Positions 20,009 through 35,966 of a DNA stretch of 35,966 bases are shown here, in pieces. Below the pieces are notes generated by a model. It was not told where the DNA came from. It saw only the letters and a program-made list of their open reading frames with translations, and ran no database searches. The stretch comes from Altibacter sp. (GTDB lineage: Bacteria; Bacteroidota; Bacteroidia; Flavobacteriales; Flavobacteriaceae): positions 34,719 through 70,684 of the forward strand of contig NZTP01000093.1 in assembly GCA_002696485.1 (NCBI GenBank). The letters run 5' to 3'. The first letter of the stretch is position 1. Each line of letters starts with the position of its first letter. Made by a program: the position numbers and the translations under genes.

Positions 20009-22942
20009 ATGAAAAAATTGCTTGCAACCTCACTTCTTGCACTCGTTCTATTCCCTGTATTTTCACAGCAAATTAATCCATTAATCGTTAAGGAGGACTT
20101 CCCGAATCAGCAAAAATGGGTCGATAGTATCTATGGTAACATGTCCCTTCAGGAAAAGATCGGACAATTGTTTATGGTCGATGTGTTTTCCAGTGATCCT
20201 ACCTCTAAAACCGATAAAGTGAAAGACCTAATTGCCAATCAATACATTGGCGGTGTTATCTTTTCGAAAGGAGGCCCTATGCGGCAAGCCAAACTAAATA
20301 ACGAGTTTCAAGCCGCTTCAAAAATACCACTTATGGTTGCCATGGATGCCGAATGGGGACTCGCCATGCGTTTGGATTCTACCTTTGCATATCCTTGGAA
20401 TATGACCCTGGGAGCCATTAAAGATAACCGTATTGTTGAAAAAATAGGAGAACGTATTGGGGAGCATTGCAAACGTTTGGGAGTGCACATCAATTTCGCT
20501 CCCGTGACCGACATTAACACGAATCCGAAGAATCCCATTATCGGGAACCGTTCGTTTGGCGAAGACAAAGACAATGTTACCGAAAAGGCTCTGGCATTTA
20601 TGAAGGGAATGCAGCGTGCCGGGATTTTGGCAAATGCAAAACATTTTCCCGGTCATGGGGATACCGATACCGACTCCCACAAGACGCTGCCCACGATCAA
20701 CTTTAGCAAAGAGCGAATTGACAGTATAGAACTTTACCCTTATAAGCGTCTTATCAACAACGGACTGAGCAGTGTGATGGTTGCGCATTTAAACGTTCCA
20801 TCGCTGGAAGAACGTAGCGATTATCCATCTTCCATTTCCAGAACAATTGTTTCAGGAATTCTTAAAGGTCAATTGGGTTTTAACGGACTTATTTTTACCG
20901 ATGCCCTTAATATGAAGGGAGCTTCCAACTTTTCATCACCCGGGGAGATTGATCTGGCTGCATTTCTAGCCGGGAATGACGTTCTATTGATTTCTGAAGA
21001 CATCCCAAAAGCGCACCAACTCTTAGTGAATGCCTATCGCGAAAAAGTGATCACTGAAGAACGCCTGGAGCATTCCGTAAAAAAAATTCTGTACGCGAAA
21101 TATAAGGTGGGGCTCCACGATTATGCTCCAGTAGATACTAATTATTTAATCGAAGAACTCAATACAGTACAGGACGCTGTTCTGTATGAGGAATCCATGG
21201 AGAAAGCACTTACTGTTTTAAAGAATGAACAAGATATTCTACCCATCAAAGACCTTCAAAAAAGTTCCATTGCCTACGTCAATTTTGGTGATGACGACGG
21301 CAGTGCGTTTTTGGACCAATTGCAACAATACGCACAAGTGGATTGGGTCAAGGCAGATGACTTGGACAGTTACATAAAGAAATTAGCAACCTATACCCAC
21401 GTGATTATTGGTTTTCATAAGTCGAATGCATCACCATGGAAAGACTACGAGTTTACTGAAAATGAATTGGTCTGGATCTATGAGATCGCACGTACCAACA
21501 AGGTTATTTTGGATGTATTTGCCCGTCCATACGCTCTTTTAAACCTGAGAAGCCGTGCCAATTTTGAAGGGATTGTGCTCTCGTATCAAAACAGCGAAGT
21601 GAGTCAGCAACTGTCGGCTCAATTAATTTTTGGAGCGAGAAAAGCGAACGGTCAGTTGCCGGTTTCATTGGGACCCGATTTTCCGCTGCATACTTCTATT
21701 GAAACGAATAGTATGAATCGTTTACAGTACGGTACTCCAGAAAGTGTAGGTATGAACAGCTTTACCCTGCATAAAATAGATTCGCTTGCTCGCACGGGGA
21801 TCTATGGCGGTATGACCCCGGGAATGCAAATATTGGTAGCCCGTAAGGGGAAAGTAGTTTATCAAAAGAATTTTGGGTACCACACTCAGGAAAACAAGAA
21901 TGCCGTAAAGAACGATGATGTGTATGATGTGGCATCACTTACCAAAATACTCGCAACATTACCGTTGGTGATGGAACTTGTAGATCGGGATGTTCTTTCT
22001 ATGGATACCAAGCTTTCTGAAATGCTCCCGGAATACAAGAATTCAAATAAAAAAGATATCACCCTTAAAGAGATCCTTACGCACACGGGCAGACTACAGG
22101 CGTGGATACCATTTTACATTGGAACCTTGGACACATTAACCAAACAACCCGCAGCAAAATACTATTCCAAATCACCTTCTGAAACATTTGGTTTGCCAGT
22201 GGCGGAAGACTTGAATATGCGTACCGATTATCAGGATTCCATATACAATATCATCCGAACGAGTGAATTGAGGGACCGGCCGGGATATAAATACAGCGAC
22301 CTGCCGTACTATATCCTGAAAAAATACCTGGAAGAATTCTACGGAACGCCTTTGGACAAGCTGGTACAGCGAAATTTATATGAGCATCTTGGTGCCAATT
22401 ATACCACGTACAATCCGCTTCAAAAATTCTCAAAGATCGATATCGTTCCAACAGAAGACGATTACAGCTTTCGTATGCAGAAAGTTCACGGTTATGTGCA
22501 TGACCAAGGGGCAGCCATGTTAGGAGGAGTAGGGGGTCATGCAGGACTTTTCAGTAATGCCAACGACATCGCGAAGATTATGCAGATGTATCTTTGGAAA
22601 GGGTTTTATGGCGGAAAGCGATTCTTTAAACCACAAACCTTGGACGCCTTCAATACATGCTATTACTGTGAAAGCGATGTACGGCGCGGTGTCGGGTTCG
22701 ACAAACCGCAATTGGGTGATGTTGGCCCAACCTGCGGCTGTGTCTCCATGACCAGTTTTGGGCATAGCGGGTTTACGGGAACATTAACTTGGGCAGACCC
22801 TGAAGAAGAGATTGTTTATGTATTTTTATCGAACAGAACCTATCCCAGTGCCGACAACCGCAAACTAATTGGAAGTAATTTGAGAAGTAATATTCAATCC
22901 GTTATATACGATGCTATCGATTTTAAAAACACCGACCTATGA
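20009..22942 (+). CDS. Fused NagZ-type glycoside hydrolase family 3 and serine hydrolase (beta-lactamase fold)
   Basis: The 977-residue exported protein has a signal peptide at 1-19. The GH3/NagZ domain (about 35-370) has the catalytic-loop signature KHFPGHGDTDTDSH (211-224) and nucleophile D298 in FTDALNMKGAS, so it should cut GlcNAc from muropeptides. A middle domain of about 380-570 resembles the GH3 C-terminal part. The C-terminal class C beta-lactamase-like domain has S643-x-x-K646 (SLTK), Y762-S-D, and HSGFTGT near the end; such domains hydrolyse D-amino-acid peptides or esters. The fusion joins sugar and peptide trimming of wall fragments. The gene overlaps bshA by 4 nt. Confidence 0.92.
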   Translation: MKKLLATSLLALVLFPVFSQQINPLIVKEDFPNQQKWVDSIYGNMSLQEKIGQLFMVDVFSSDPTSKTDKVKDLIANQYIGGVIFSKGGPMRQAKLNNEFQAASKIPLMVAMDAEWGLAMRLDSTFAYPWNMTLGAIKDNRIVEKIGERIGEHCKRLGVHINFAPVTDINTNPKNPIIGNRSFGEDKDNVTEKALAFMKGMQRAGILANAKHFPGHGDTDTDSHKTLPTINFSKERIDSIELYPYKRLINNGLSSVMVAHLNVPSLEERSDYPSSISRTIVSGILKGQLGFNGLIFTDALNMKGASNFSSPGEIDLAAFLAGNDVLLISEDIPKAHQLLVNAYREKVITEERLEHSVKKILYAKYKVGLHDYAPVDTNYLIEELNTVQDAVLYEESMEKALTVLKNEQDILPIKDLQKSSIAYVNFGDDDGSAFLDQLQQYAQVDWVKADDLDSYIKKLATYTHVIIGFHKSNASPWKDYEFTENELVWIYEIARTNKVILDVFARPYALLNLRSRANFEGIVLSYQNSEVSQQLSAQLIFGARKANGQLPVSLGPDFPLHTSIETNSMNRLQYGTPESVGMNSFTLHKIDSLARTGIYGGMTPGMQILVARKGKVVYQKNFGYHTQENKNAVKNDDVYDVASLTKILATLPLVMELVDRDVLSMDTKLSEMLPEYKNSNKKDITLKEILTHTGRLQAWIPFYIGTLDTLTKQPAAKYYSKSPSETFGLPVAEDLNMRTDYQDSIYNIIRTSELRDRPGYKYSDLPYYILKKYLEEFYGTPLDKLVQRNLYEHLGANYTTYNPLQKFSKIDIVPTEDDYSFRMQKVHGYVHDQGAAMLGGVGGHAGLFSNANDIAKIMQMYLWKGFYGGKRFFKPQTLDAFNTCYYCESDVRRGVGFDKPQLGDVGPTCGCVSMTSFGHSGFTGTLTWADPEEEIVYVFLSNRTYPSADNRKLIGSNLRSNIQSVIYDAIDFKNTDL

Positions 22943-24066
22943 AAATTGCGATAGTTTGTTATCCAACCTTTGGAGGAAGTGGCGTTGTAGCAACCGAATT
23001 GGGTATTGCCTTGGCAGAGCGAGGTCATGAGATTCATTTTATTACTTACAATCAACCGGTAAGGTTGGAACTGGTTTCGCATAACATCCATTATCATGAA
23101 GTAACCGTCCCGGACTATCCATTGTTCCATTATCAACCGTATGAATTGGCCTTGTCAAGCAAATTGGTGAACATGGTGAAACTATATGGAATCGAACTGC
23201 TTCATGTTCACTATGCCATACCGCATGCGTACGCAGGATATATGGCCAAGAAAATGCTCGAAGAAGAAAACATCTATATCCCCATAGTAACCACTCTTCA
23301 CGGAACTGATATAACACTGGTAGGAAATCACCCATTCTACAAGCCGGCCGTAACCTTCAGTATTAATAAAAGCGAAGTGGTAACGTCAGTTTCTGAAAGT
23401 CTTAAAGAAGATACACTTCGATTGTTCGATATCACCAATGAAATAGACGTGGTCCCAAACTTTATTGATGTTGCGAAGCACGACAACCCTTATACCGACT
23501 GTCAAAGGGATCTAATGGCAGATAAGAATGAAAGAATCATTACACACATAAGTAACCTACGCCCCGTAAAACGTGTCATGGATGTCATTGAGATCTTTGA
23601 CCGTATTCAGAAAAAAATACCGGCCAAGCTTATCATGGTAGGAGAAGGTCCCGAAAAAGAAGCGTGTGAGGCGTTGTGTGTTAAGAAGGGGATTCAGGAA
23701 AAAGTATTATTTTTAGGGAACAGCAGCGAGATCAATAAGATTCTGTGTTTTACAGACCTCTTTTTGTTGCCTTCAGAAAAAGAGAGTTTCGGTCTTGCAG
23801 CCTTAGAAGCAATGGCCTGCGGTGTTCCTGTGATCTCCAGTAATACCGGCGGATTGGCTGAAGTGAATGTACAGGGGGTAAGCGGGTATTTAAGCGATGT
23901 AGGTAATGTAGATGAGATGGCTGCAAATGCTTTACAGATTTTAAAAGATGAAAAAACCTTATCGCAATTCAAGAAGCAAGCTAAAGAAGCTTCACGAAAA
24001 TTCGACACAAAAAATGTAGTACCCTTATATGAAACTGTTTATGACAAAGCCTTTCAGAAAATATAG
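22939..24066 (+). CDS. bshA: N-acetyl-alpha-D-glucosaminyl L-malate synthase BshA
   Basis: The first enzyme of bacillithiol synthesis joins GlcNAc from UDP-GlcNAc to L-malate. The 375-residue GT4, GT-B-fold protein has the N-terminal loop FGGSG (11-15), HYAIPHAYAGYMAK, HGTD at 121-124, and the retaining-GT EX7E motif ESFGLAALE (282-290) in the C-terminal half. These features separate BshA from other GT4 enzymes. Its ATG overlaps the stop of the NagZ fusion (ATGA), so translation is coupled. bshB and bshC are not in the window. Confidence 0.94.
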   Translation: MKIAIVCYPTFGGSGVVATELGIALAERGHEIHFITYNQPVRLELVSHNIHYHEVTVPDYPLFHYQPYELALSSKLVNMVKLYGIELLHVHYAIPHAYAGYMAKKMLEEENIYIPIVTTLHGTDITLVGNHPFYKPAVTFSINKSEVVTSVSESLKEDTLRLFDITNEIDVVPNFIDVAKHDNPYTDCQRDLMADKNERIITHISNLRPVKRVMDVIEIFDRIQKKIPAKLIMVGEGPEKEACEALCVKKGIQEKVLFLGNSSEINKILCFTDLFLLPSEKESFGLAALEAMACGVPVISSNTGGLAEVNVQGVSGYLSDVGNVDEMAANALQILKDEKTLSQFKKQAKEASRKFDTKNVVPLYETVYDKAFQKI

Positions 24067-30279: not shown

Positions 30280-31725
30280 ATGAAAAAATTAGCACTGCAC
30301 TGGAAGATCATTATCGGATTGGTATTGGGTATTATTTGGGCCTTGCTGTCCAGTCAGTTGGGATGGAGCGCCTTTACGATCAATTGGATCGCACCCTTTG
30401 GTACTATTTTTATCAATTTACTGAAATTGATCGCGGTTCCTTTGGTATTGGTTTCTATTATTAGTGGTGTAGCGAATATTGGTGATGCCGGAAGTCTGGG
30501 CCGCATGGGTGGAAAAACATTACTTGCCTATTTGGTCACTACTGTTTTAGCGGTAAGTTTGGGATTGGCACTTGTAAATGTGATCAAGCCCGGAAAATTA
30601 GTAGATGAACAAAGTCGTATCGACAATAGAATTAGCTACGAGCTTTGGGCGAGTTCGCAAGGGTATCAAATTAAGGACGGTATCAATTATCTGCAAGAAC
30701 CCGAATTTTTTGAACGTGCGCAACGTATCACAGAGCTATCCAAAAGTGAATTGCAGGATGCTGCGGTTACCGAAAAAATGAAAACTGCCGATGAGACGAA
30801 AGACGCTACTCCGTTGCAACCTCTGGTAGACCTCGTGCCACAGAATTTTTTCTTATCCTTAACAGATAACGGGTTGATGTTACAGATCATTTTCTTCGGC
30901 TTGTTCTTTGGCGTGTGTTTATTATTGATCCCTAATGAAAAGTCTCAGGCCGTTACCAGTTTTATGGATAGTGCCATGGAGGTCTTTCTTAAAATGGTGG
31001 ATCTTACAATGCAGGCTGCGCCCTTCTTTGTTTTTGCGCTATTGGCAGGCGTAGTGAGTAAAATGGCCGGAGATGATATTAGCAAAGTATATGAAATATT
31101 TAAAGGATTAAGCTGGTACTCATTAACGGTCTTTTTAGGCCTTATGCTTATGATATTCGTGGTGTATCCAACTATATTAAAGCTGTTTGTTAAGAAGATT
31201 CCTTATACCGGCTTTTTTAAGGCGATGAGCCCTGCACAAACGCTAGCATTTTCCACCTCGAGTAGTGCCGCTACCTTACCGGTGACCATGGAATGTGTGG
31301 AAGAGAATCTGGGGGTGGATAAAAAGATAACCAGTTTTGTGTTGCCAATTGGTGCTACCGTGAACATGGACGGAACTTGTTTGTATCAAGCCGTAGCTGT
31401 TGTTTTCTTGGCTCAACTTCACATGATCGATCTCACTTTGGGTCAGCAGTTGACCATCGTACTTACTGCAACCCTTGCGTCTATTGGCTCTGCTGCTGTG
31501 CCCAGTGCCGGATTGGTGATGTTGATCATTGTTTTGGACTCGGTAGGGTTAAATCCGGCTTGGATCGCGATCATCTTTCCTGTTGACCGTATCTTGGACA
31601 TGTTCCGCACCGTTGTGAACGTGACCGGAGACGCTACAGTGTCAACGATTATCGCAAACGGGGAGGGGATGCTACAGTACGAACCTCAGGAGAATCCTAC
31701 AGAAACATTTGACCTTGACTCGTAA
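30280..31725 (+). CDS. Dicarboxylate/amino acid:cation symporter (DAACS family)
   Basis: The 481-residue polytopic transporter has the features of Glt/Dct proteins: a serine-rich re-entrant loop AFSTSSSAATLPVT, the cation-binding NMDGT in TM7, and a second re-entrant loop near IGSAAVPSAG, then FPVDRILDMFRTVVNVTGD in TM8 with the substrate-contacting Asp and Asn. An insert of about 70 residues (roughly 110-185) between early helices is polar. Likely substrates are glutamate, aspartate or C4-dicarboxylates with Na+ or H+. It may be read with aroC or alone. Confidence 0.93.
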   Translation: MKKLALHWKIIIGLVLGIIWALLSSQLGWSAFTINWIAPFGTIFINLLKLIAVPLVLVSIISGVANIGDAGSLGRMGGKTLLAYLVTTVLAVSLGLALVNVIKPGKLVDEQSRIDNRISYELWASSQGYQIKDGINYLQEPEFFERAQRITELSKSELQDAAVTEKMKTADETKDATPLQPLVDLVPQNFFLSLTDNGLMLQIIFFGLFFGVCLLLIPNEKSQAVTSFMDSAMEVFLKMVDLTMQAAPFFVFALLAGVVSKMAGDDISKVYEIFKGLSWYSLTVFLGLMLMIFVVYPTILKLFVKKIPYTGFFKAMSPAQTLAFSTSSSAATLPVTMECVEENLGVDKKITSFVLPIGATVNMDGTCLYQAVAVVFLAQLHMIDLTLGQQLTIVLTATLASIGSAAVPSAGLVMLIIVLDSVGLNPAWIAIIFPVDRILDMFRTVVNVTGDATVSTIIANGEGMLQYEPQENPTETFDLDS

Positions 31726-32710: not shown

Positions 32711-32741
32711 TTTTCAGATTATTCGATAATTGCTATCTTTA
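32711..32741 (+). promoter_or_regulatory. Promoter of the three-gene ligase/hydrolase operon
   Basis: TTTTC (32711-32715), an 18-nt spacer and TATCTTTA (32734-32741), each one base off consensus. The ATG at 32765 lies 23 nt downstream, giving a short leader. Confidence 0.45.
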
Positions 32742-32764
32742 GTTTATAATCAAAACCAGCCTTT

Positions 32765-33793
32765 ATGAACGTTTGCTTCATTATGTACCCTTGGGAAGAG
32801 ATCAAACCCGAGGACGACTCAACACTTGCCATGATCCATGAGTTTGTAAAGCGCGGTCACGGCTTGGCAATCACAACACCGGCCAATTTAACGATACGTG
32901 ACAGCGTTGCTTTTGCCTTTTCCAAATGTTACAAGAGAAAAGAAAAAATATCTTCCAGTTTAAAATCTTTTCATACACATGCCGAATTCTATGATGAAAT
33001 GCTTCCCTTGGCGGGTTTTGATGTCATTATCCTACGAAGCAATCCGCCCCTGGACATGATCATGCTTAATTTTCTGGATTCTGTCAAAGACGATGTATTC
33101 ATCATGAACGATTTGGATGGGATTCGGCGTGCCAATAACAAACTTTACACGGCTGTTTTTGAAGATGACAGCAACGAGATGATCCCACGTACGCATGTAA
33201 CAAAGAACAAAGAATACTTAAAAAAGACTATTAAAGAAGGCCCGGACAAAATGATATTGAAGCCACTCAACGGCTTTGGAGGTTCGGGAGTCATCTTAAT
33301 CGAGAAAAGCGCCATGCTAAGCATCAATTCGCTCCTCGATTTTTATATTGACAACCGCGATGGTACCACCAATTATGTGATTCTGCAGGAATATATTGAA
33401 GGTGCAGATCAAGGGGATGTACGTATCTTATTGCTGAATGGTAAACCTATTGGTGCGATGAAGCGTGTGCCGGGCGATGAGGATCATCGCTCGAATGTAA
33501 GTGCGGGTGGTTCGGTACAAAAACACACCTTATCCAAAAAAGAAAAGGAACTCTGCCGAAGAATTGGTCCGAAGCTGGTATCAGACGGGCTTTATTTTGT
33601 GGGAATCGATGTCATCAATGGAATGCTGGTAGAAGTGAACGTCATGTCTCCGGGGGGTATTACGTATATGAATCGTGTCTATAAAACAAGAGTTCAAGAA
33701 AAGATTATTGATTTTGTGGAAGATAAGGTGCTCGAGCGTGTATCTGCTTTCGAGCGTCGCCACAAACTTCGTAAACATGTAGATGAAGCGTAA
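32765..33793 (+). CDS. GshB-like ATP-grasp ligase
   Basis: The 342-residue protein resembles glutathione synthetase across its length: an N-terminal substrate domain (MYPWEEIKPEDDSTLAM; ILRSNPPLDM at 89-98), the ATP-grasp lysine and glycine loop MILKPLNGFGGSGV (163-176), QGDVRILLLNGKPIGAMKRV (216-235), NVSAGGSV, and the metal-binding E290-V-N292. It should join a carboxylate to an amine through an acyl-phosphate. No gamma-glutamylcysteine ligase gene is near and the organism carries bshA, so glutathione is an unlikely product. It overlaps the next gene by one base (TAATG). Confidence 0.88.
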   Translation: MNVCFIMYPWEEIKPEDDSTLAMIHEFVKRGHGLAITTPANLTIRDSVAFAFSKCYKRKEKISSSLKSFHTHAEFYDEMLPLAGFDVIILRSNPPLDMIMLNFLDSVKDDVFIMNDLDGIRRANNKLYTAVFEDDSNEMIPRTHVTKNKEYLKKTIKEGPDKMILKPLNGFGGSGVILIEKSAMLSINSLLDFYIDNRDGTTNYVILQEYIEGADQGDVRILLLNGKPIGAMKRVPGDEDHRSNVSAGGSVQKHTLSKKEKELCRRIGPKLVSDGLYFVGIDVINGMLVEVNVMSPGGITYMNRVYKTRVQEKIIDFVEDKVLERVSAFERRHKLRKHVDEA

Positions 33794-34629
33794 TGGAAAG
33801 GTTGATCGTTTCAGAAATCATTAAAAGGATACAACGTGAAGACTGTTTTGAAGCTGTTTCAGAAGACAATTCCTTTACGTTAAAGATCGACCGTTACGTG
33901 CCCTATGTGTGTGGTGCGGTGCATGACGGACACCAATTTAGGAAGGAACTGTGGGATAAATGCCTTCATACAGGGTACGATAGGTGGTTTGAAGAAGATC
34001 CCTGCACGAAAGATTTCATAGCCTCGCATCCTATCGTGATCGCCGGTAGAGATAGCCGGTTCGAATACGATCTTAACCGTGATCCTGAAAATGCTATCTT
34101 TGAAACCGCGTGGGGAAAAGAACTCTGGAAAGAACCGCTTTCCGAAGATGAACGACGTGTAAGTCTGGAGAAACACAGTGCCTTCTACAGTGTAGTGGAA
34201 GCATTGATGTGCAAAATGGAAGAAAAATTTGGAGCAGTAGTCGTATATGACATGCATTCGTATAACTGGCGACGATGGGATCGTGAAGTTCCCGTTATTA
34301 ATTTAGGGACTACAAATGTGGATAATGAACGGTTTGGAAAAATTATAGAACGTTGGCGGCATAGCCTTTCGGAGTTGGTATTTCCCAATGGGTTGGAAGC
34401 TACTTCTAAGATTAACGATACCTTCTTCGGAAATGGATATTTTCTTAAATTCATTACCCAGAACTTCAAAAATACCTTAGTTTTGGCGACAGAATTCAAA
34501 AAGATATACTGTGATGAACGGCGGCAGGTTATCTATCCTGAAATGGTTTCAGCCATCGAAAAACAACTTCAGCAAAAGATAAAAGAACACGCCGATCAAT
34601 TCTACAGTATGCATAAACCTGAGGCATGA
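33793..34629 (+). CDS. N-formylglutamate amidohydrolase-like enzyme
   Basis: The 278-residue protein matches the N-formylglutamate amidohydrolase (HutG-type) family: AVHDGHQF (42-49), RDSRFEYDLNRDP (86-98), the metal-site VYDMHSYN (151-158) and LATEFKKIYCDE near the C-terminus. The fold is related to zinc carboxypeptidases and cuts amide bonds next to glutamate-like groups. No histidine-degradation gene is nearby, so the classic role is unlikely. It is coupled to both neighbours, by a 1-nt overlap upstream and a 4-nt overlap downstream, which points to work on the same compound. Confidence 0.88.
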   Translation: MERLIVSEIIKRIQREDCFEAVSEDNSFTLKIDRYVPYVCGAVHDGHQFRKELWDKCLHTGYDRWFEEDPCTKDFIASHPIVIAGRDSRFEYDLNRDPENAIFETAWGKELWKEPLSEDERRVSLEKHSAFYSVVEALMCKMEEKFGAVVVYDMHSYNWRRWDREVPVINLGTTNVDNERFGKIIERWRHSLSELVFPNGLEATSKINDTFFGNGYFLKFITQNFKNTLVLATEFKKIYCDERRQVIYPEMVSAIEKQLQQKIKEHADQFYSMHKPEA

Positions 34630-35789
34630 CCTATCTCCGCGTACTAACCGAAGCACATCCCAATCTATTTAAGATCGATCAAACTTTAAATAAATTAGTT
34701 CAAAAGATCGAATTGCTTAATTATATCAACCCGATCAATATTGAACAGGAAAAGCGAAATTTTTTTGCTTCCAAGTACAACATCAATCCGAATTTTAAAT
34801 ACCGAAAGATCGATTTTGATGCCCATAAGTTGCAACAGGCACTCTTTTCACAAGACATAGACAGTATTCGGGATCCGGAGACTCAAAAATTTTACCGGGA
34901 TGTGATTTACGATTATTCCGGTTTGGTGCAATGCATCGAAACTATTGGAAAAGGCAGAAAATTCTATTACAACGCTCTTAAATCCTTTGGTACACCCACC
35001 CAAAAGGATGTTGAGAACGCGCAATTTATTTTACATTTTCAGGACGAGGAATACAACCAAGAGATGTTTCCTGTCTTTAGTGCCGATGAAGCCACGGAGT
35101 ATTTTATGGAATTCTCAAAAAAATACGATTTTGAGGTTTCGATAAAGCATTCAACAAAAATTACGGCGGCAGCGATGGTACAGAACAATACCCAACGCAT
35201 GTTGTTAAAGAAAAATCACCGGTTTAGTGCAAATCAATTAAAAGTGCTCGCCAATCATGAAATAGGCGTGCATTTGGTCACTACCTTCAACGGGATGAAA
35301 CAATCTTTAAGGATATTTCATAACGGATTTCCTAACAATGTAGAAACGCAGGAAGGATTAGCGGTTTTTAGTGAATATATGAGCGATTGCCTCACGCTTT
35401 ATCGTTTAAAGGAACTTTCGTATCGTGTTCTGGCTGCTGACAGTCTGCACAAGGGTTTTAGTTTTTGCGACACCTTCGATCTTTTGCACAATCAATATAA
35501 GTTGAATAGAGAAGAGGCGTATAATATTTCCTTGCGGGCCCACCGAGGGGGTGGTTTTACAAAGGATTATAAATATCTTACCGGACTTAAAAAAATATAC
35601 GACCACTACAACGCGGGAGGTGATCTTTCGCTCCTGTTAACAGGAAAAGTGTCATTAAAGCACGAGCAGACCATACAGAAATGGCAAAAAGAAGGTCTCT
35701 CACAAAAAATTACCTATAAGAATGAGGCCTTCAACGCCAATACAAATTCCAACCAAACCATCGAGTTTATTCTTCAGAATTTAAAATAG
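34626..35789 (+). CDS. DUF1704 'QEGLA/QEGLP' family zinc metallopeptidase
   Basis: The 387-residue soluble protein has a zinc-peptidase signature HEIGVH at 211-216 and QEGLAVFSE at 242-250, whose glutamate is the probable third ligand. Some annotations call the family a flavohemoglobin expression modulator; its eukaryotic relatives include the MATCAP tubulin carboxypeptidases, which remove a C-terminal Tyr. A peptidase acting on a C-terminal or single-residue bond is the best reading. It is the last gene of the operon; its stop codon runs into the terminator stem. Confidence 0.87.
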   Translation: MTYLRVLTEAHPNLFKIDQTLNKLVQKIELLNYINPINIEQEKRNFFASKYNINPNFKYRKIDFDAHKLQQALFSQDIDSIRDPETQKFYRDVIYDYSGLVQCIETIGKGRKFYYNALKSFGTPTQKDVENAQFILHFQDEEYNQEMFPVFSADEATEYFMEFSKKYDFEVSIKHSTKITAAAMVQNNTQRMLLKKNHRFSANQLKVLANHEIGVHLVTTFNGMKQSLRIFHNGFPNNVETQEGLAVFSEYMSDCLTLYRLKELSYRVLAADSLHKGFSFCDTFDLLHNQYKLNREEAYNISLRAHRGGGFTKDYKYLTGLKKIYDHYNAGGDLSLLLTGKVSLKHEQTIQKWQKEGLSQKITYKNEAFNANTNSNQTIEFILQNLK

Positions 35790-35824
35790 AAAAGCAGGTA
35801 AAAATTTAATTTTACCTGCTTTTC
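35789..35824. terminator. Strong bidirectional terminator
   Basis: A perfect 15-bp inverted repeat (GAAAAGCAGGTAAAA and its complement) surrounds a 6-nt loop; the first base is the last base of the upstream stop codon. It separates the three-gene operon from the convergent T9SS-cargo gene. A small extra hairpin (AGTCT/AGACT, about 35841-35854) sits at the stop of the latter. Confidence 0.93.
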
Positions 35825-35852
35825 CGGTATTAACTAATCTAGTCTAAAAAGA

Positions 35853-35966
35853 CTACTCTTTAATAATCTGGTACGTTCCAATTTGTCCGTTTACGGTTGC
35901 TTTCAGGATATAGGTTCCTGTAGCAAGTCCCGAAACATCCAATTGCGAACTCGTAGCTCCGATCTT
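35853..35966 (-). CDS. C-terminal end of a T9SS-secreted protein (type A sorting domain), partial
   Basis: The minus-strand frame is open from the window edge to a TAG at 35855-35853 and gives 37 residues ending LDVSGLATGTYILKATVN and then GQIGTYQIIKE. The LDVSGLxxGxYxL core followed by a short hydrophilic stretch and a final K-x is the consensus of the type A C-terminal sorting domain that sends proteins through the type IX secretion system. The body of the gene is outside the window, so its function cannot be told. Confidence 0.85.
   Translation of the reverse strand, partial: KIGATSSQLDVSGLATGTYILKATVNGQIGTYQIIKE

What the first reader, a model, noticed from the sequence alone, without database searches (positions are those of the whole stretch)
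32765..35789. Coupled operon: GshB-like ligase, N-formylglutamate-amidohydrolase-like enzyme and DUF1704 peptidase
Three genes overlap by 1 and 4 nt, have their own promoter-like element, and end in a strong terminator that starts inside the last stop codon, so they form one closed unit. One enzyme makes amide bonds with ATP; the other two belong to families that cut amide or peptide bonds, one of them next to glutamate-like groups. No glutathione, histidine-degradation or transport gene accompanies them. The inference is a build-and-trim pathway: either a small glutamate-containing peptide is made and remodelled, or an amino acid is added to and removed from a protein tail, as the tubulin-carboxypeptidase kinship of DUF1704 would allow. 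I know these families can occur together in other bacteria, but know of no established product.
Basis: partly seen in the sequence, partly recalled or inferred. Interest (0 to 1): 0.8.

Follow-up and report, generated by a model that had tools for sequence, protein, structure and literature searches.

The report
Conserved ligase–hydrolase–carboxypeptidase gene module
Three neighbouring genes encode an enzyme that builds amide bonds and two that cut them; the set recurs across distant bacteria, is probably mislabelled as glutathione synthesis, and may add and trim acidic amino acids when salt is low.

Summary
The operon is real: GshB-like ATP-grasp ligase (A), N-formylglutamate-amidohydrolase-like enzyme (F) and MATCAP/DUF1704 metallopeptidase (D), overlapping by 1 and 4 nt and closed by a hairpin. 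The promoter is unproven, and "no transport gene" is wrong: a glutamate/aspartate-type symporter lies upstream. F and D are fused in other families. A second version (F, pseudo-F–D fusion, ligase A2) occurs in rhizobia and Bacteroidota. The ligase is probably not glutathione synthase: no GshA found in the host genome, bacillithiol genes present, a clade apart from GshB. In Photobacterium damselae genes with consecutive tags, annotated GshB and QEGLA and by gene order this pair, rise 38- and 27-fold at low salt (published RNA-seq). Best reading: a write-and-trim module, A extending and D (with F) trimming an acidic peptide or protein tail, analogous to RimK–RimB and the rlo operon, linked to low-salt adaptation. 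Substrate and activities are untested. New variant of a known kind.

The parts
32765..33793 (+). A: GshB-type ATP-grasp C-N ligase (NF009110/PRK12458 subfamily), 342 aa
   Evidence: residues shared with five GshB-type sequences include K126, K166, R220, R234, R242, N244, D282, E290, N292
33793..34629 (+). F: N-formylglutamate-amidohydrolase-like hydrolase, 278 aa; 1-nt overlap with A
   Evidence: AlphaFold model pLDDT 87.5 closest to 2q7s/2odf; H44, D93, N95, R96, D153, E234 invariant in 21 divergent members, H155 in 20 of 21
34626..35789 (+). D: DUF1704/MATCAP metallopeptidase, 387 aa; HExxxH at 211-216 and E243 in QEG; 4-nt overlap with F
   Evidence: model pLDDT 91.2 closest to human MATCAP 7z5g/7z6s, TM 0.58-0.60 by query
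35789..35824 (.). hairpin, probable bidirectional terminator
   Evidence: (z -6.3)
32723..32750 (+). weak sigma-70-like promoter match, unproven
   Evidence: not above shuffles
30280..31725 (+). SDF (glutamate/aspartate-type) symporter upstream; possible but unproven partner

Best explanation
A, F and D form one functional module that makes and unmakes amide bonds on the same acidic substrate. A, a GshB-type ATP-grasp ligase that is not the glutathione synthase, activates a carboxyl group with ATP and adds an amino acid to it. D, a metallopeptidase of the MATCAP fold, removes residues from that carboxyl end. F, a FGase-fold hydrolase that acts as a unit with D, cleaves an amide next to an acidic residue. 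The likely substrate is glutamate-rich: a small peptide pool or a protein tail. In marine bacteria the module would be raised when external salt falls, much as RimK is, and D (with F) would keep the ligase's product in check. SHOWN here by computation: families, gene order, conserved neighbourhood, co-occurrence of ligase with D, F-D fusion, kinship of the N domain of type II D with F, no GshA found in the host genome. SHOWN in print: low-salt induction in Photobacterium damselae of two genes with consecutive tags annotated GshB and QEGLA. INFERRED: that those two are A and F-D; the F-D complex, the direction of the chemistry, the acidic substrate, a protein or peptide target, the osmotic role in Flavobacteriaceae.
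For: Gene order: A, F and D on one strand in 72 of 80 genome-contig loci (50 A-F-D, 12 with one inserted gene, 9 with two, 1 with two F frames; 7 have D alone, 1 is cut by its contig end); the 80 are the best of at least 555 and all Flavobacteriaceae-like. Co-occurrence: in the same 395 sampled Bacteroidota genomes the ligase family NF009110 passes its cut-off in 17 and all 17 have D within a few kb; D is in 19 (Fisher p 6e-28, not corrected for shared ancestry). The two others: G197, ligase at 396.5 bits, just under the cut-off of 408, in the same gene run; G361, D alone. Fusion: F-D is one protein of 662-681 aa in 8 Bacteroidota loci (L022-L028, L143), two Photobacterium and one Vibrio. Second version: F, N-D (about 610-660 aa), A2 in rhizobia and Bacteroidota and one record named Roseateles; the N domain matches F (hhalign probability 96.8, E 2e-10) but lacks F's catalytic positions. 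Not glutathione: host genome has neither glutamate-cysteine ligase family; of 25 genomes with D, 0 have PF04262 and 5 have PF04107; host has BshA (564 vs cut-off 274) and BshC (473 vs 266); A, A2 and five GshB-type sequences (three annotated gshB, two ORFs of unannotated stretches) form three supported clades. Low salt: A0J47_RS17020 'GshB' 38.4-fold and A0J47_RS17025 'QEGLA' 27.5-fold up at 1% vs 3% NaCl, RimK 52-fold (PMC10308900, passages); Photobacterium DA100 and GJ3 carry A directly followed by F-D. Chemistry: MATCAP/TMCP enzymes are carboxypeptidases that also remove glutamates (PMC10499314, passages). Asymmetry: in the Bacteroidota sample ligase implies D, while D may stand alone, as expected if the ligase product must be trimmed; in the rlo operon, mutants without the proteases cannot grow at low osmolarity and are rescued by loss of the ATP-grasp protein (PMC12239564, sections 11-12). 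All 73 D (of 80) with F in the locus keep the metal site HEHE; 2 of 7 solitary D have lost two ligands.
Against: No activity or substrate is tested. Five of seven solitary-D genomes have no NF009110 ligase over the cut-off yet D keeps its metal site (completeness of these genomes not told, F elsewhere not searched), so D may have a use without A. The two solitary D that lost their metal site (Salinimicrobium) are in genomes that do have a type II ND-A2 pair elsewhere, probably one event. Three Ensifer plasmids carry A2-type ligases with no F or D in 15 kb. A Vibrio F-D has lost H155 of F and has no ligase beside it. The low-salt data are from one species under a condition that changed 1,808 genes; the RM-71 'GshB' sequence was not fetched, so its identity with A rests on gene order in two other Photobacterium. 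A keeps the GshB core and passes the NF003573 glutathione-synthase cut-off (282.7 vs 272). The symporter link may be mere synteny.
Confidence: 0.5

Rival explanations
1. Biosynthesis of one defined small peptide metabolite (osmolyte, cofactor or thiol analogue): A joins two units, F removes a protecting N-acyl group or matures the acidic end, D trims the precursor; nothing is recycled.
For: F-family hydrolases stand beside other amide ligases too: GCS2 and FGase genes side by side in G348, with an ATP-grasp-like gene recognised by eye. AstE/AspA-type deacylases stand next to N-D and A2 in three loci where F is missing (L030, L149, L150; for two of the three proteins).
Against: A dedicated carboxypeptidase coupled to F is odd in a one-way pathway; the ligase-implies-D asymmetry fits trimming better; no precursor gene or exporter was noticed among the neighbours (by eye, not searched).
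Confidence: 0.25
2. Scavenging: peptides or N-acyl glutamates taken up (with the upstream symporter) are cut by F and D to free glutamate, and A conserves part of the product as a dipeptide.
For: Symporter upstream in 59 of 72 loci with A; D and F are both hydrolases and occur fused.
Against: The most conserved member is the ATP-using ligase (mean pairwise identity A 0.795, F 0.665, D 0.63 in 71 loci); no SDF gene in 13 type II loci; no peptide importer or histidine-degradation gene was noticed nearby (by eye, not searched).
Confidence: 0.13
3. A is a true glutathione synthase with glutathione-degrading neighbours.
For: GshB domains and catalytic core; passes the NF003573 cut-off.
Against: No GshA found in the host and no Glu_cys_ligase in 25 D genomes; bacillithiol genes present; TIGR01380 cut-off not met (234 vs 299); separate clade, with a Thr constant in five GshB-type sequences changed to Gly (A position 297) in all 20 A and A2 compared. 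An S. meliloti record (Ak57, CP090106) has its own annotated gshB, 33% identical to the Shinella A2 query, while accession CP090105 carries A2 (same strain assumed from the numbers, not checked).
Confidence: 0.06
4. The three genes are neighbours by inherited synteny without shared function.
For: Flavobacteriaceae loci share wider synteny (chorismate synthase in 63 of 80).
Against: Same partners in different order, as fusions and in other genomic settings in other families and phyla.
Confidence: 0.03

Closest known systems
RimK-RimB (Pseudomonas): ATP-grasp glutamate ligase plus retropepsin-like protease acting on the tail of ribosomal protein S6 (RpsF)
   Same: ATP-grasp ligase adds residues to a C-terminus, a linked protease removes them; ligase and protease also occur fused (PMC11957791, abstract and passages)
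   Different: A is GshB-type, below the RimK-family cut-off (96 vs 143); the trimmers are a MATCAP-fold metallopeptidase and a FGase-fold hydrolase, not a retropepsin; target unknown. The host genome has RimK-like ligases and an AstE-like gene elsewhere.
rlo operon (P. aeruginosa): RloA proteases, RloB, RloC ATP-grasp
   Same: ligase-protease operon tied to growth at low osmolarity; the growth defect of protease mutants is rescued when the ATP-grasp gene is deleted (PMC12239564, sections 11-12)
   Different: unrelated secreted proteases, a transglutaminase-like membrane protein; RloC is described as RimK-like (24% identity)
TTL/TTLL and MATCAP/TMCP cycle on tubulin tails
   Same: D is in the MATCAP family (PF08014; TM 0.58-0.60 to 7z5g) and is paired with an ATP-grasp ligase
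   Different: no tubulin; ligase is GshB-type, not TTL; D about 17% identical to human MATCAP; the TTL half is recalled
Bacterial glutathione synthase GshB
   Same: both domains and the catalytic core
   Different: separate clade, no GshA found in the host, operon with two hydrolases
HutG N-formylglutamate deformylase and AstE/ASPA deacylases
   Same: F has the FGase fold (2q7s, TM 0.68, 17% identity)
   Different: F has no NCBIfam match; no match between the F and AstE profiles

Membership tests
GshB glutathione synthase | GSH-S_N and GSH-S_ATP domains | tested here: met
GshB glutathione synthase | equivalog model cut-offs | tested here: inconclusive
   NF003573 282.7 vs 272 met; TIGR01380 234.1 vs 299.05 not met
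GshB glutathione synthase | GshA partner in the genome | tested here: not met
   own genome (95.8% complete): no match to PF04262 or PF04107
GshB glutathione synthase | groups with annotated GshB | tested here: not met
   five GshB-type rows (three annotated gshB) and nine A rows form separate clades, support 100/99 and 100/97; long branches warned of
GshB glutathione synthase | makes glutathione | not testable with these tools
   needs enzyme assay
HutG N-formylglutamate deformylase | FGase domain and fold | tested here: met
HutG N-formylglutamate deformylase | TIGR02017 equivalog match | tested here: not met
   no NCBIfam match for F; type II F of L040 25.6 vs 278.75
MATCAP/DUF1704 (PF08014) | Pfam model, HExxxH and E metal site, fold | tested here: met
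MATCAP/DUF1704 (PF08014) | C-terminal carboxypeptidase activity | not testable with these tools
   needs assay
TIGR02421 QEGLA | curated cut-off | tested here: not met
   304.3 vs 338.65; the Photobacterium, Vibrio and Pseudoalteromonas members tested pass it
RimK-RimB system | RimK-family ligase with retropepsin partner | tested here: not met
   RimK subfamily 96.3 vs 143.4; F and D match other Pfam families only

The most novel reading that the evidence does not exclude
The cluster is a bacterial relative of the tubulin-tail cycle: an ATP-grasp ligase writes and a MATCAP-type carboxypeptidase, coupled to a FGase-fold hydrolase, erases acidic residues on a glutamate-rich peptide pool or protein tail, so that cells adjust to falling salt. 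Many genes now labelled glutathione synthase would be its writers.
Probability: 0.25. Interest if true: 0.85.

Novelty: new variant of a known kind. Interest (0 to 1): 0.62.

Why it matters
It gives a poorly understood bacterial family (DUF1704, named 'flavohemoglobin expression-modulating' in NCBIfam) recurrent partners, a fused architecture and a testable condition (low salt). It suggests that a 'GshB' highlighted in a virulence transcriptome is probably not the glutathione enzyme. It also offers bacterial relatives for studying how MATCAP-type tail peptidases are paired with ligases.

Tried and rejected
Defence system: no PADLOC match for any of the three at E 0.01. Phage cargo: one distant record among 50,697 phage records and one short viral-contig match, so not a mobile phage module. 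Bacterial discussion in the TMCP/MATCAP paper: nothing seen in the passages read. Literature on the cluster: searches for DUF1704, QEGLA, MATCAP with bacteria, ATP-grasp with N-formylglutamate amidohydrolase, and glutathione synthase with that enzyme listed no study of it (listings seen, and passages of PMC10308900, PMC10499314, PMC4431377, PMC11957791, PMC12239564 only). Only open-licence papers are held; the 2009 amidoligase survey that I recall as possibly relevant is not held. PMC4431377 (ATP-grasp survey) has no mention of formylglutamate or peptidases.

Profile comparison of F with the AstE-like neighbours gave no similarity, so the exchange of F for AstE is a pattern of neighbourhood only: 3 of the 4 Bacteroidota type II loci without F (on the opposite strand in L150); the fourth is the host's own C65. 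A mirror-tree test was not run; F was not sought elsewhere in the solitary-D genomes.

Rows chosen or dropped: the weak G118 match (E 6e-4, stop inside) was dropped. L151 (high GC) was not counted because the ORF caller chose wrong frames. Alignments used subsets: 31 rows for F (of 74 F frames found), 33 rows for D (of 80 loci), 19 for D across types, 25 ligases. One search failed half-way because gapped alignment rows overwrote the query proteins; its partial output was not used and the count was redone.
Full report
WHAT IS THERE. Three ORFs on the + strand, 32765-33793, 33793-34629 and 34626-35789, overlap by 1 and 4 nt. They encode a GshB-type ATP-grasp ligase (A), an N-formylglutamate-amidohydrolase-like protein (F) and a DUF1704/MATCAP metallopeptidase (D). 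A 15-pair hairpin starts at the last base of D's stop (z -6.3). The promoter claim is not supported above chance. The window ends at its contig end. Its nearest named loci are Flavobacteriaceae, at up to 78% identity of D.

CONSERVED NEIGHBOURHOOD. Of these 80 loci, 72 have A, F and D on the same strand: 50 as A-F-D, 12 with one and 9 with two inserted genes, 1 with two F frames. Seven have D alone and one is cut by its contig end. A to F lies within 30 nt in 46 of 72, F to D in 58 of 72. Inserted genes looked at in one locus (L021) are a rhodanese and a weakly TerB-like protein. In a sample of the order, 16 of 196 genomes matched D; one match is weak and was dropped, and all 15 further loci with D (14 in other genomes, one more in the own genome) have a ligase in the same gene run. 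In the phylum sample D is in 19 of 395 genomes and the ligase family NF009110 passes its cut-off in 17; all 17 have D, a few kb away at most. G197 has the ligase at 396.5 bits, just under the cut-off of 408. G361 has D alone. Fisher p is 6e-28; it ignores shared ancestry.

ARCHITECTURES. Type I is A-F-D, or A with an F-D fusion (L022-L028, L143, Photobacterium L039 and L221). Type II is F, then a longer D with an extra N-terminal domain, then a second ligase A2, in rhizobia, in a record named Roseateles but flagged UNVERIFIED_ORG and in Bacteroidota (L144, L146-L148). The extra domain, tested in two proteins, has no Pfam or NCBIfam match, but its profile from 14 sequences matches F (hhalign probability 96.8, E 2e-10), with F's catalytic stretches missing. 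So D is tied to F as a neighbour, as a fusion to an F that keeps its conserved residues, or as a fusion to a degenerate one; I infer a physical F-D unit. Two genomes carry both versions in one run, A-F-ND-A2 (L031, L032). The host genome has a second ND-A2 pair on C65. In plasmid records a type II F query (E up to 1e-30) matches 115 and D (E up to 1e-5) 127 records, with equal counts for Sinorhizobium 79, Rhizobium 11, Ensifer 9, Shinella 5, Aminobacter 3, Pararhizobium 2, Phyllobacterium 2 and Photobacterium 2; counts are by genus, not record by record. D's surplus includes Pseudoalteromonas 9 and a Legionella; in the one Pseudoalteromonas and the Legionella region viewed, D stands alone.

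NOT THE GLUTATHIONE ENZYME, PROBABLY. The host lacks a match to both glutamate-cysteine ligase families. Among 25 genomes with D, 0 have PF04262 and 5 have PF04107. The host has BshA (window 22939-24066) and BshC, that is, bacillithiol genes. In a tree, 9 A rows, 14 A2 rows (3 of them orphan Ensifer copies) and 5 GshB-type rows (three annotated gshB, two ORFs from unannotated stretches) are three separate clades; the tool warns of long branches and the root is only for drawing. The catalytic core is kept, while 13 columns constant in the five GshB differ in every A and A2, among them a Thr replaced by Gly at A position 297. Against this, A passes the NF003573 glutathione-synthase cut-off.

F AND D. 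F's model is closest to N-formylglutamate amidohydrolase structures 2q7s and 2odf, with M14-type carboxypeptidases next. D's model is closest to human MATCAP; M32 carboxypeptidases follow at E above 0.001. D's metal site HEHE is intact in all 73 loci with F and in 5 of 7 solitary D; it is lost (H216N, E243A) in the two Salinimicrobium, whose genomes have an ND-A2 pair elsewhere. TMCP/MATCAP enzymes remove residues from tubulin C-termini and also glutamates (PMC10499314, passages).

PHYSIOLOGY. In Photobacterium damselae RM-71, RNA-seq at 1% versus 3% NaCl lists A0J47_RS17020 'GshB' at 38.4-fold and the next tag A0J47_RS17025 'QEGLA' at 27.5-fold up, with RimK at 52-fold, among 1,808 changed genes (PMC10308900, passages). 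Two other Photobacterium have A followed directly by F-D, so these are very probably A and F-D; the RM-71 sequence itself was not read. The authors discuss the first gene as the glutathione enzyme. The rlo operon of P. aeruginosa pairs an ATP-grasp protein with proteases needed for growth at low osmolarity, and deleting the ATP-grasp gene rescues that growth in protease mutants (PMC12239564, sections 11 and 12 read). The pattern here is parallel: in the Bacteroidota sample the ligase is never without D, but D can be without the ligase (5 of 7 solitary-D genomes have none over the cut-off).

VERDICT. One functional module is nearly certain; that the ligase is not the glutathione synthase is likely; write-and-trim on an acidic substrate with a low-salt role is my best but untested reading (about 0.5). 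Main counter-evidence: solitary D with an intact metal site, three orphan A2 in Ensifer with no F or D in 15 kb, and a single-species expression study.

Noticed in passing
window 30280-31725: SDF (Glu/Asp-type) symporter upstream of the operon; upstream of A in 59 of 72 related loci with A, F and D, but in none of 13 type II loci.
   Followed up: partly
window 22939-24066 and L029 5500-7095: BshA in the window and BshC beside the host's second ND-A2 pair: bacillithiol genes.
   Followed up: yes
L098 and L106: Solitary D of two Salinimicrobium has lost two metal ligands (H216N, E243A); none of 73 D with F in the locus has. Both genomes have an ND-A2 pair elsewhere, one with a doubled A2.
   Followed up: yes
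L038 7128-9119: Vibrio F-D fusion without a ligase beside it, F domain H155 changed to Y; a DUF413 (maoP) gene and a LysR gene next to it.
   Followed up: partly
L232 3165-6434 (own genome C39): Two RimK-like ligases around a small RimB-like protein (by eye, no family search), followed by an AstE-like gene.
   Followed up: partly
L233, L234: Another cassette in Bacteroidota: a peptidase-like gene (by eye), an ATP-grasp gene, GCS2 and FGase (in L233 the ATP-grasp gene, in L234 the GCS2 gene, by eye).
   Followed up: no
L153, L154, L141: Solitary DUF1704 proteins of about 424-429 aa without ligase or F listed nearby in Pseudoalteromonas, Legionella and one Bacteroidota.
   Followed up: no
L222, L223, L224: Extra A2-type ligases in Ensifer plasmids without F or D in 15 kb.
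   Followed up: yes
L030, L149, L150: AstE/AspA-like deacylase next to ND and A2 where F is missing (family search on two of the three).
   Followed up: partly
window 35825-35966: Minus-strand frame that runs off the contig and converges on the operon's hairpin; it looks like the end of a secreted protein (by eye).
   Followed up: no
L225 (CP090106.1): Record titled S. meliloti pSymB is 3.7 Mb and carries gshB and rsmI; probably the chromosome mislabelled.
   Followed up: no
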